Shown here piece by piece: positions 43,234 through 45,937 of a stretch of DNA of 64,000 nt. The notes under the pieces are model-generated. The model did no database searches. It worked only from the letters and a program-made list of their open reading frames with translations, and was not told where the DNA came from. A program made the translations under genes and the position numbers. The stretch's first letter is position 1, and each line of letters opens with the position of its first letter. The DNA is taken from assembly GCF_024198235.1 (NCBI RefSeq), contig NZ_JAKCFB010000022.1, forward strand, positions 1 through 64,000, read 5' to 3'. The stretch is from Myxococcus dinghuensis. Its GTDB lineage: Bacteria; Myxococcota; Myxococcia; Myxococcales; Myxococcaceae.

Positions 43234-44370
43234 ATGTCGTCCCCTTCGCCTTCCATCCTCAGCGCCGAGGAGCTTCGGCGCGCCCTGTCCGTTCGTGATT
43301 TGACCGACCCCGCCCTGGGCGAGCACGCGATGCAGCGACTCGTCGAGTCGACCCTGGAGGCCCTGCGCGCCGCGTGGGGCTGTGAGGTCCGGCTGCATCG
43401 CCAGAGTCCCGTCGTCTCCATCTCCGACAACTACGACCGGCTGCACTACCCGCCCGGGGGCGCCGCCCGGGACGCCCGCTACACGCGCTACGTCTGCGAC
43501 ACGGCGCTGCTGCGCACCCAGACGTCGGCGATGATTCCCGGGCTGCTCCGGCGACTGGCCACCGAGCCCCCGGCGGACGTGCTGCTGGCGTGTCCGGGGC
43601 TCGTCTACCGGCGGGACTGCATCGACCGGCTGCACACCGGCGAGCCCCACCAGATGGACCTGTGGCGCCTGCGTCGGGGCCCCCCCCTGACGACGCGGGA
43701 CCTGCGGGACATGATCTCCACCGTGGTGGAGGCGGTGCTCCCAGGCCGGGAGGCACGGCTGACCGACGCGACCCACCCCTACACCACCCACGGACTCCAG
43801 GTGGACGTGCGCGACGGTGACGGGTGGGTGGAGATCGGCGAGTGCGGGCTCGCGCTCCCCGCCCTCATCGAAGAGGGTGGCCTCGACGGAAGCGGCGTCA
43901 CGGGCCTGGCCATGGGCCTGGGGCTGGACCGCATCCTGATGCTCCGCAAGGGACTGGACGACATCCGCCTCCTGCGCTCGCGCGAGCCGCGCATCCTCGC
44001 GCAGCTCCAGGACCTGGGCCCCTACCGGCCGGTGTCCGCCATGCCGGCGGTGCGCCGGGACATGTCGCTCGCCGTGGACGCGCAGCAGACACCCGAGGAG
44101 CTGGGGGACACGGTGCGCTCCGCGCTCGGCGCGAGGGCGGAGCTGGTGGAGAGCGTGGAGGTCCTCTCCGAAACGCCCTACGCCGAGCTCCCCGCTGGCG
44201 CGGTGAAGCGCATGGGCGTGTCGCCGGAGCAGAAGAACGTGCTACTGCGGGTGGTGCTGCGCGCGCTGGAGCGCACGCTCACCCACGAGGAGTGCAACAC
44301 GCTGCGGGACGACATCTACGCGGCGCTGCACCGGGGCCGCGTGTCGGAGTGGGCCGCCCGGCCGCGATGA
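43234..44370 (+). CDS. free-standing PheRS-like protein (catalytic core plus FDX-ACB domain)
   Basis: 378 residues. Class II core of the PheRS alpha type: LLRTQTSAMIPGLLRRL, motif 2 PGLVYRRDCIDRLH and PHQMDLWR, motif 3 GLAMGLGLDRILMLRKG and DIRLLRS. The C-terminal ~90 residues (SAMPAVRRDMSLAVD to TLRDDIYAALHRG) are an FDX-ACB anticodon-binding domain, normally at the end of the beta chain. This monomeric layout is that of mitochondrial PheRS, unlike the bacterial alpha2beta2 enzyme. GAGAGG precedes ATG 43234. It may charge tRNA or a non-tRNA acceptor, or act as a paralogue with a separate role. Confidence 0.88.
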   Translation: MSSPSPSILSAEELRRALSVRDLTDPALGEHAMQRLVESTLEALRAAWGCEVRLHRQSPVVSISDNYDRLHYPPGGAARDARYTRYVCDTALLRTQTSAMIPGLLRRLATEPPADVLLACPGLVYRRDCIDRLHTGEPHQMDLWRLRRGPPLTTRDLRDMISTVVEAVLPGREARLTDATHPYTTHGLQVDVRDGDGWVEIGECGLALPALIEEGGLDGSGVTGLAMGLGLDRILMLRKGLDDIRLLRSREPRILAQLQDLGPYRPVSAMPAVRRDMSLAVDAQQTPEELGDTVRSALGARAELVESVEVLSETPYAELPAGAVKRMGVSPEQKNVLLRVVLRALERTLTHEECNTLRDDIYAALHRGRVSEWAARPR

Positions 44371-44391: not shown

Positions 44392-45921
44392 TCACACCTT
44401 GTAGAGCAGGTCCATGTACTTCTTGAGCAGGTCGCTCACGAGGCCACGGAAGGGGACGGCGGCGGCCATGCCGTAGACGGGCGCCATCGTCCCCTGCTCG
44501 CCGGGGTTCGCCTTCACGTACTCCACCGCCGCGCGCAGGTCCTGGAGGAACCGCTGCGCCACGCCCGGCTGCGCGTGGCGCAGCGTCACGCACAGGTGGA
44601 CGGCGGCGGGCTTGTGCAGGCCGTTGAGGCTCCAGCCCCGCTCGCCCATCCGCTCCATCACCTTGAAGATGTCCAGCGATGGCGAGCCGAACGCGATGAC
44701 GAACAGCGGGTCCCCCAGCACGTGCAGCTCCGGAATCGCGCGGATGCCCTGCTTGAGCGTGTCCGCCGTCTCCAGGATGCGGCGGGTGGCCTCCAGGTAG
44801 CCCTGCTCGCCCATGCTCACCAGCGACGCCCAGGCCACGGCGATGAGCGCGCCGGGCCGGCTGCCGGAGAAGGTGGGCGAGAAGTAGATGCCGCCGGGCC
44901 ACTCGGTGGCGGTGAAGTACTGGTGCGAGCGCAGCTCCGTCCCCCGGTACAGCACGACCGACGAGCCCTTGGCCGCGTAGCCGAACTTGTGTGTGTCCGC
45001 GGACATGGACGTCACGCCCGGCAGCCGGAAGTCGAAGGGCGGCACCTCGTACCCCAGCTTGCGCGCGAACGGCAGCACGAAGCCGCCCAGGCACGCGTCG
45101 GTGTGGAAGCCCAGGCCCTTCTTGCGCGCCAGCTCGGACAGCTCCGCGATGGGGTCGATGACGCCGTGGGGGAAGCCGGGCGCCGAGCCGACGAGGAGGA
45201 TGGTGTTGCGGTTGAGGGCCTTCTTCGTGGCGGCCACGTCCGCGCGGTAGTCCGGCCCCACGGGCACGCGCACCATCTTCACCCCGAAGTAGTGCGCGGC
45301 CTTGTCGAACGCGGGATGCGCGCTGGACGGCGCCACCATCTCCGGGCGGGTGATGCCCCGCTCGTCGCGGGCGTAATCGCGGTACGTCTTCACCGCGAGC
45401 ATGATGCTCTCCGTGCCGCCGGAGGACATGGCGCCGCAGATGTGCTCGGCCTGGGGGCGGCCCGCGTTGGCGGCGTCGGCGCCCAGCATGTTCGCCGTCA
45501 TCGCCACGACCTCCGCCTCGAACTTGGTGGCGCTGGGCCACAGGTCGGCGTGCAGGGGGTTGCTCTGTGAATGCAGCCCGTAGACGCGGTTGAGGAAGTC
45601 GATGTGCTCCGAGTCGCCGTTGTACACGGCGCCGGACACCTTGCCGTCGCGCCAGCGCAGCTCCTCCTGGGACTCCAGCGCCTGCATCTCGCGCAGCACC
45701 TCCTCCCGCGAGCGCCCCGTCACCGGCAGCCGGTCGAACGTCGACATCTTCCCCCGGTAGGGCTTGAGGCTGCCCTCCAGCTCTCCCATCAGGGTGTCCG
45801 TCTCCTTCGACAGGAGGTCGCGCACCACCGGCACGGCCTTGAGGTAGCGCTCCGCCACGGACAACAGGCGCGGTGGGACGTGGTTCAACAGGCGCATCGA
45901 CTTCGGGTCGGGCAGTGCCAT
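44392..45921 (-). CDS. PLP-dependent lyase of the sphingosine-1-phosphate lyase/group II decarboxylase type
   Basis: 509 residues. Fold-type I PLP features: [34 protein letters not shown], and the Schiff-base lysine in [15 protein letters not shown], the exact SPL-like block. The opening [22 protein letters not shown] and [11 protein letters not shown] also match SPL (Dpl1) rather than glutamate decarboxylase. SPL cleaves long-chain base phosphates to an aldehyde and phosphoethanolamine. Myxobacteria contain sphingolipids, so degradation or remodelling of these is plausible. It has no membrane anchor. GGAG precedes the ATG. It follows the FGGY kinase by 16 bases in one operon. Confidence 0.9.
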
Positions 45922-45937
45922 GTGGGGCTCCTCGACG

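What the first reader, a model, noticed from the sequence alone, without database searches (positions are those of the whole stretch)
43234..44370. Monomeric, mitochondrial-style PheRS-like protein in a bacterium
It fuses the alpha-type catalytic core (motifs 2 and 3 visible) with the beta-type FDX-ACB domain in 378 residues, lacking all other beta-chain parts. Bacteria normally rely on alpha2beta2 PheRS. It could be a resistance paralogue, a repurposed amino-acid activator, or a stress-specific synthetase.
Basis: partly seen in the sequence, partly recalled or inferred. Interest (0 to 1): 0.6.

Follow-up and report, generated by a model that had tools for sequence, protein, structure and literature searches.

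The report
Single-chain phenylalanyl-tRNA synthetase relative (SrmL)
A bacterium that already has the normal enzyme for loading phenylalanine onto its transfer RNA carries a second, much smaller single-chain relative, which giant phages keep among their own tRNA genes and some pseudomonads keep beside a peptide-product cassette, so it is probably a spare loading enzyme used when the normal one is blocked.

Summary
Window 43234-44370 (+) encodes 378 aa: a PheRS-alpha-type core plus a C-terminal FDX-ACB domain. The genome also has normal pheS-pheT, so this is not the housekeeping enzyme. NCBIfam already holds it as NF051887, "PheS-related mystery ligase SrmL", without a function. Its AlphaFold model matches human mitochondrial PheRS full-length (Z 33.8, 340 residues). 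Catalytic arginines are invariant in 21 of 21 sequences; the amino-acid pocket and the G34-reading site are remodelled.

Two new contexts point to function. (1) Six huge-phage records encode SrmL and no PheS; three have it inside tRNA arrays (once between two tRNA-Phe genes, once in a cluster with six other synthetase genes). (2) In a Pseudomonas genus sample, 12 of 249 genomes encode a conserved 33-aa peptide, in 11 followed by a full-length CgnB/CgnE-type (crocagin RiPP) protein; all 12 carry srmL divergently next door, while 11 more genomes keep srmL alone.

Best reading: an active stand-alone tRNA-Phe-directed synthetase used as a bypass, self-resistance for the peptide cassette and orphan resistance in myxobacteria. 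Its amino acid, its tRNA and the inhibitor are inferred, not shown.

The parts
43234..44370 (+). srmL coding sequence, 378 aa, stop codon included
   Evidence: NF051887 525 bits, cut-off 300
43402..44004 (+). PheRS-alpha-type class II catalytic core (residues 57-257)
   Evidence: PF01409 1.9e-31
43597..43671 (+). motif 2 region, residues 122-146 (GLVYRRDCIDRLHTGEPHQMDLWRL): R126, R127, D128, E137, P138, H139, Q140, D142, W144 are 21 of 21
   Evidence: motif naming from general knowledge
43774..43782 (+). H181-P182-Y183, at the place of the bacterial FPF loop of the phenylalanine pocket; H181 and Y183 are 21 of 21
   Evidence: FPF loop role from PMC12447630 and PMC3275996
43840..43842 (+). E203, 21 of 21, where bacterial PheS has Gly in L-G-(C/S/A)-G
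43903..43950 (+). motif 3 region, residues 224-239 (GLAMGLGLDRILMLRK); R233 is 21 of 21
44035..44331 (+). FDX-ACB anticodon-binding-type domain (residues 268-366), without the Asp-x-aromatic G34 contact of PheT B8 and mitochondrial PheRS
   Evidence: PF03147 3.5e-9; alignment; G34 contacts from PMC7540514

Best explanation
SrmL is an active, single-chain, PheRS-derived aminoacyl-tRNA synthetase that acts on tRNA-Phe and works as a bypass for the cell's alpha2-beta2 PheRS. Its remodelled pocket and anticodon site let it keep Phe-tRNA coming when the normal enzyme is blocked. In pseudomonads it is the self-resistance gene of a small RiPP-like cassette (33-aa precursor plus CgnB/CgnE-type peptide-binding protein) whose product is inferred to hit PheRS. 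In myxobacteria (this window), actinobacteria and on plasmids it is an orphan resistance copy. In huge phages it serves as the phage's own compact PheRS for phage tRNA-Phe. Shown: architecture, coexistence with pheST, purifying selection, invariant catalytic residues, phage tRNA/synthetase context, cassette linkage. Inferred: aminoacylation, Phe as substrate, tRNA-Phe as acceptor, the inhibitor and its target.
For: Fold: AF2 model (pLDDT 88.6) aligns to human mitochondrial PheRS over 340 residues, Z 33.8, rmsd 2.5; a phage member gives Z 35.1 over 343 residues, rmsd 3.1. Best PDB profile hit is the same enzyme, 1e-34. Catalytic R126 and R233 are 21 of 21; dN/dS 0.19-0.28. Phages: 6 of 6 phage records with SrmL have no full PheS by PF01409 (completeness of five unknown). 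In 3 of 6, srmL lies in a tRNA array; in L134 its two nearest tRNA genes are both tRNA-Phe(GAA). In L133 it sits among LysRS-type, Trp/Tyr-type, SerRS, HisRS-type, PF00587-type and AlaRS-type genes and 23 tRNAs. Two tRNA-Phe genes were seen in each of 5 of 6. Cassette: peptide in 12 of 249 Pseudomonas genomes, all 12 srmL-positive (23 of 249 in all; Fisher 1.5e-14, uncorrected for relatedness). Cassette state changes 8 times on the SrmL tree, 5 forced by well-supported branches. Bacterial srmL is patchy and plasmid-borne, with no partner common to all groups.
Against: The three marks of PheRS specificity are altered in all members checked: FPF loop to H-x-Y, Gly to Glu in the pocket, and (recalled role) the adenine-stacking Phe of motif 2 to Pro. 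The Asp whose loss abolishes hmtPheRS activity (D364, PMC7540514) has no clear counterpart. So the amino acid or the tRNA could differ. In 2 of 6 phage records the tRNA arrays lie away from srmL, and in 1 of 6 no tRNA was found. No PheRS-targeting RiPP was found in print. Bacterial srmL loci have no tRNA-Phe nearby (18 loci scanned). No CgnE-like match was found in the window's phylum sample (0 of 195), so resistance there is by analogy.
Confidence: 0.45

Rival explanations
1. SrmL is a synthetase re-specified for another amino acid (canonical, oxidised or non-proteinogenic), still charging a tRNA. The HxY/Glu pocket and the new anticodon domain read a different pair.
For: H181, Y183, E203, D142, P138, W144 are 21 of 21 and differ from PheS; the G34-reading Asp-x-aromatic is not kept.
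Against: Phage copies lie next to ordinary tRNA-Phe(GAA), and no PheS is present in those records. The pocket alanine (A226, E. coli A294) and the conserved Q of motif 2 (Q140) are kept in 21 of 21. Cytosolic PheRS also lacks FPF (Asn410/Tyr412) and still takes Phe (PMC12447630, PMC3275996).
Confidence: 0.25
2. SrmL is a biosynthetic ligase: it activates an amino acid (with or without tRNA) and joins it to a peptide or metabolite, for instance the product of the Pseudomonas cassette.
For: Constant linkage of the 33-aa peptide and the CgnB/CgnE-type protein to srmL in 12 of 12 genomes; srmL is a solo gene elsewhere, so tRNA charging for translation is not the only option.
Against: 11 of 23 srmL-positive Pseudomonas genomes lack the peptide, the 195-genome phylum sample has no CgnE-like match, and no peptide motif was found in the other loci read, phage loci included, beyond one chance match in L057. 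srmL outlives the cassette repeatedly. The FDX-ACB domain is kept.
Confidence: 0.15
3. SrmL is an ordinary spare PheRS with no special resistance role, spread by phages and kept for dosage or Tyr-mischarging tolerance.
For: Full PheRS-like fold and phage context.
Against: Invariant departures from PheRS in the pocket; strict pairing of the peptide cassette with srmL; patchy, plasmid-borne distribution.
Confidence: 0.1
4. SrmL is a degenerate or inactive paralogue.
For: Loss of several PheRS signature residues.
Against: Catalytic arginines 21 of 21, dN/dS 0.19-0.28, high-confidence fold.
Confidence: 0.05

Closest known systems
NCBIfam NF051887 'PheS-related mystery ligase SrmL'
   Same: Full-length match, 525 bits against a cut-off of 300: it is a member.
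   Different: The model gives a name and no function; phage tRNA-array members and the Pseudomonas peptide cassette are added here.
Human mitochondrial PheRS (FARS2; PDB 3CMQ, 5MGU, 8P8X)
   Same: Single chain, alpha-type core plus FDX-ACB, same order; best profile and structure match.
   Different: FPF loop is H-x-Y, motif 2 FHQ is PHQ, pocket Gly is Glu, the G34 contacts Asp364 and Phe366 are not kept; bacterial and phage, beside a complete pheST in bacteria.
Bacterial PheRS alpha2-beta2 (PheS/PheT)
   Same: Homologous core and C-terminal B8/FDX-ACB domain.
   Different: No coiled coil, no B1-B7, no editing domain; SrmL is a distinct clade, 100/100.
CgnB/CgnE family of crocagin biosynthesis (PDB 6ZSU, 6ZSV)
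   Same: The Pseudomonas neighbour of srmL is a homologue (1.9e-19 to 6ZSV); its peptide has a basic N-terminal half, as the paper reports for the CgnA leader.
   Different: Only one copy; no CgnC-like gene in the three-gene unit; the main text does not mention a synthetase (one 'tRNA' hit, in the reference list). Its Supplementary Data, which list mined precursors, were not readable here.
Self-resistance aaRS copies in antibiotic producers (mupirocin MupM, obafluorin ObaO; recalled)
   Same: Second, divergent synthetase beside a product cassette, with a normal copy elsewhere.
   Different: Here PheRS type, single chain, and the product is not known.

Membership tests
NCBIfam NF051887 (SrmL) | score over the curated cut-off of 300 bits, full length | tested here: met
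   525 bits, model positions 1-349 of 349
Monomeric mitochondrial-type PheRS | one chain with alpha-type catalytic core followed by FDX-ACB, no other beta domains | tested here: met
   (340 residues aligned, Z 33.8)
Monomeric mitochondrial-type PheRS | score over the TIGR00469 pheS_mito cut-off | tested here: not met
   109 bits against 258
Monomeric mitochondrial-type PheRS | shared ancestry with mitochondrial PheRS to the exclusion of bacterial PheS | tested here: inconclusive
   tree: mt row (a fragment) is a long branch, support 88/72
Monomeric mitochondrial-type PheRS | G34 recognition by Asp364 and Phe366 | tested here: not met
   no aligned Asp-x-aromatic in SrmL (contacts from PMC7540514)
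Monomeric mitochondrial-type PheRS | monomer in solution, charges tRNA-Phe with Phe | not testable with these tools
   needs protein
Bacterial PheRS alpha subunit (PheS) | TIGR00468 cut-off and FPF loop | tested here: not met
   106 bits against 237; FPF replaced by H-x-Y in 21 of 21
Self-resistance aminoacyl-tRNA synthetase | second copy besides the housekeeping enzyme | tested here: met
   pheS and pheT on C81; all 43 SrmL genomes of the phylum sample have at least two matches
Self-resistance aminoacyl-tRNA synthetase | lies in a product cassette | tested here: inconclusive
   met in 12 of 24 Pseudomonas loci counting one with a truncated CgnE-like gene; no peptide motif in this window and no CgnE-like match in 195 genomes of its phylum
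Self-resistance aminoacyl-tRNA synthetase | insensitive to an inhibitor of the housekeeping enzyme | not testable with these tools
   inhibitor unknown

The most novel reading that the evidence does not exclude
SrmL is the immunity enzyme of an unrecognised class of RiPP antibiotics (33-aa precursor with the NFGWAPLxWA core, matured by a single CgnB-type metalloprotein) that poison phenylalanyl-tRNA synthetase. The same single-chain PheRS was taken up by giant phages, which build their own Phe-charging from it, and by myxobacteria, actinobacteria and resistance plasmids as orphan protection. That would make it a fourth form of PheRS.
Probability: 0.25. Interest if true: 0.85.

Novelty: new variant of a known kind. 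Interest (0 to 1): 0.62.

Why it matters
A 2010 review lists three forms of PheRS and calls the mitochondrial one the only known monomeric class II enzyme (PMC3275996, passages). A single-chain PheRS-type enzyme in bacteria and phages, coexisting with pheST, would be a fourth. It gives a named 'mystery ligase' a testable function, supplies a very compact synthetase, and points to a peptide cassette whose product may target PheRS, a drug target for which the searches made here found no natural resistance enzyme.

Tried and rejected
Conserved partner gene in the window's own lineage: rejected. Neighbours vary between lineages; the best-shared clusters (15 of 50 loci) track one myxobacterial group only. 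A dedicated tRNA beside bacterial srmL: 18 loci scanned (one of them, L059, a phage), one tRNA-Gly found. A defence-system member: no PADLOC match for P0001, a phage SrmL or two CgnE-like proteins. Known phage family: only phrog_19793, unknown function, plus weak matches to phrog_21682 and phrog_9208. Literature on SrmL: 27 papers hold the word, the 15 listed are all about other things. A second search for a bacterial monomeric PheRS gave no such report among 13 listed; searches gave no report of a single-chain phage PheRS or a PheRS self-resistance gene in their listings. These cover open-licence PMC only.

The CgnE-like search in Myxococcota was negative (0 of 195), but no positive control genome was in that search, so it is weak. 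Eight Pseudomonas genomes have distant CgnE-like genes and match neither the peptide nor SrmL. The claim that CgnE-like genes come with srmL therefore holds only for the close type (11 of 11, plus one fragment).

A chloramphenicol or tetracycline link (Glutamicibacter and C. diphtheriae plasmids) was considered and dropped: other carriers do not share it.

Full report
What is there. The frame 43234-44370 (+) encodes 378 aa with a PheRS-alpha-type core at residues 57-257 and an FDX-ACB domain at 268-366. NCBIfam names it NF051887, 'PheS-related mystery ligase SrmL', 525 bits against a cut-off of 300; it fails the cut-offs of bacterial PheS (106 against 237) and mitochondrial PheRS (109 against 258). 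The genome holds a normal pheS (345 bits, C81:214603-215373) next to pheT (828 bits). A tRNA-Phe-like probe found one tRNA-Phe gene. So the enzyme is a second, single-chain PheRS-type protein.

Which organism. The window is therefore inferred to come from the genus Myxococcus. In that genus 18 of 27 genomes are over the cut-off, and 43 of 195 in the phylum. All 43 have at least two matches to the model; I take the second to be PheS or PheT.

Is it a working gene? NG86 dN/dS between the window copy and six relatives is 0.19-0.28, with most differences at third positions. In 21 aligned members, R126 (motif 2) and R233 (motif 3) are invariant. The AlphaFold2 model has mean pLDDT 88.6 and pTM 0.82. 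Its best structural matches are human mitochondrial PheRS over the whole chain (8P8X Z 33.8, rmsd 2.5, 340 residues; the next five entries lie within 0.2 Z, with 2.6-3.4 A over 341-345 residues), ahead of bacterial PheS (Z about 25, core only; Foldseek agrees). A sequence profile also puts the mitochondrial enzyme first in the PDB (1e-34). A phage member gives Z 35.1 over 343 residues, rmsd 3.1, although Pfam sees no FDX-ACB in it.

What is changed. Bacterial PheRS recognises Phe with an FPF loop (PMC12447630, passages; PMC3275996, section 3). SrmL has H181-x-Y183 there, 21 of 21. Human cytosolic PheRS has Asn410/Tyr412 at these places and adds Phe438 (same papers); SrmL has A, V or I at the Phe438 place by my alignment. 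The pocket Gly before C-G is Glu203 (21 of 21), FHQ-E of motif 2 is PHQ-D (21 of 21), and the pocket Ala (E. coli A294) is kept as A226 (21 of 21). In the FDX-ACB domain, the Asp-x-aromatic that holds G34 (D364, F366 in the mitochondrial enzyme; D364G is inactive, PMC7540514, passages) is replaced, while R326, N335, N355 and G368 are invariant and H366 is 20 of 21. These are coherent, conserved departures, so the enzyme is not decaying but re-tuned. Whether it still takes Phe cannot be told from sequence.

Huge phages. A scan of viral contigs with the family alignment gave five huge-phage loci (repeated scans with phage queries gave only contigs of the same five) and the INPHARED phages gave one more (LR745206, 634,780 bases). 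None of the six records has another full PheS by PF01409; two weak class II matches remain, one being the LysRS-type gene. In L133 (507,910-base contig) srmL follows a HisRS-type mini gene, in a 17-kb stretch with LysRS-type, Trp/Tyr-type, SerRS, PF00587-type and AlaRS-type genes and 23 tRNAs. In L134 (415,409) it lies between two tRNA-Phe(GAA) genes; in L137 (578,292) it closes a tRNA array, tRNA-Val then tRNA-Phe upstream. In L135 (516,805) it starts directly after a polynucleotide-kinase/phosphatase ORF of tRNA-repair type, and the phage has 59 tRNA matches elsewhere; LR745206 has 61; L136 (180,807) has none. Two tRNA-Phe genes were seen in each of the five tRNA-rich records. Huge phages are known to carry tRNAs and up to 15 synthetases (PMC7162821, passages; 'phenylalan' does not occur in its main text).

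Family tree. SrmL is one clade (100/100). The seven Pseudomonas copies in the tree nest within the phage copies (98/94 and 100/97), and phages plus Pseudomonas form a clade (100/99); the myxobacterial copies lie apart. The mitochondrial row is a long branch and its place is unsure. So Pseudomonas most simply got srmL from a phage-like source.

The Pseudomonas cassette. In the genus of Pseudomonas faucium, 23 of 249 genomes have srmL, one twice. 24 loci were read. In 11 the divergent neighbour is an intact ~320-aa protein, in one a truncated one (L117), in 12 none. The protein has no Pfam match above a cut-off and no NCBIfam match, but its profile finds the CgnB/CgnE structures of crocagin biosynthesis (6ZSV 1.9e-19; 6ZSU, CgnE, 4.7e-10). 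Between it and srmL, on its strand, lies a 31-33-aa ORF with NFGWAPL[AV]WA in 12 of 12, for example MKKKKIIKEKLNRITSGPDNFGWAPLAWAHTGE; the basic N-terminal half resembles what the crocagin paper says of CgnA leaders (PMC10070186, section 9). The peptide is in 12 of 249 genomes, all srmL-positive (Fisher 1.5e-14 without correction for relatedness). CgnE-like genes occur in 20 of 249; the 11 close ones and a fragment sit by srmL, eight distant ones do not. On the SrmL tree the cassette state changes 8 times, at least 5 by well-supported branches, and it is present in lineages near the base. Peptide never without srmL, srmL often without peptide: that is the pattern of a product with its self-resistance gene.

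Other carriers. Plasmids of Azotobacter chroococcum (55.7%) and Glutamicibacter nicotianae (49.7%) hold full copies, a C. diphtheriae plasmid a truncated one. Two of 396 Actinomycetota genomes are over the cut-off, a third matches in part. No partner was common to all groups.

Conclusion and limits. I commit to a tRNA-Phe-directed, stand-alone synthetase used as a bypass of PheRS, most likely resistance in cellular carriers (confidence 0.45 for the whole chain). The fold, the coexistence with pheST and the two genomic contexts are shown; the reaction, the substrate and the inhibitor are inferred. The strongest counter-evidence is the remodelled pocket and anticodon site.

Noticed in passing
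L113:10544-11626 and 11 further Pseudomonas loci (L054, L117-L120, L122-L124, L127, L128, L130): A RiPP-like unit: 31-33-aa peptide with NFGWAPL[AV]WA followed by a CgnB/CgnE-type protein (truncated in L117), divergent from srmL.
   Followed up: partly
L201-L206: Six Pseudomonas genomes carry a more distant CgnE-like gene beside a proline-iminopeptidase-like gene, without srmL; L119 and L131, which carry srmL, have the same peptidase gene nearby.
   Followed up: no
L133:1-17071: Huge-phage cluster of very small synthetases (HisRS-type 211 aa, AlaRS-type 240 aa, Trp/Tyr-type 240 aa) with 23 tRNAs.
   Followed up: partly
L184:5353-6189: LR745206 phage encodes a Thg1-type tRNA-His guanylyltransferase in a stretch with class I (I/L/M/V-type), D/K/N-type and AlaRS-type synthetase genes and 32 tRNAs.
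   Followed up: no
L135:6898-9146: srmL starts directly after an ORF with polynucleotide phosphatase and kinase domains of tRNA-repair type.
   Followed up: no
L058:8176-12041: Truncated srmL between erm(X) and a tetracycline efflux gene on a C. diphtheriae plasmid; the Glutamicibacter plasmid (L057) has an intact copy in a region with a tetracycline efflux gene.
   Followed up: no
window 44392-45936 (-): A convergent pyridoxal-dependent decarboxylase-type gene ends 21 bases downstream of srmL; conserved next to srmL only in part of the myxobacterial loci.
   Followed up: no
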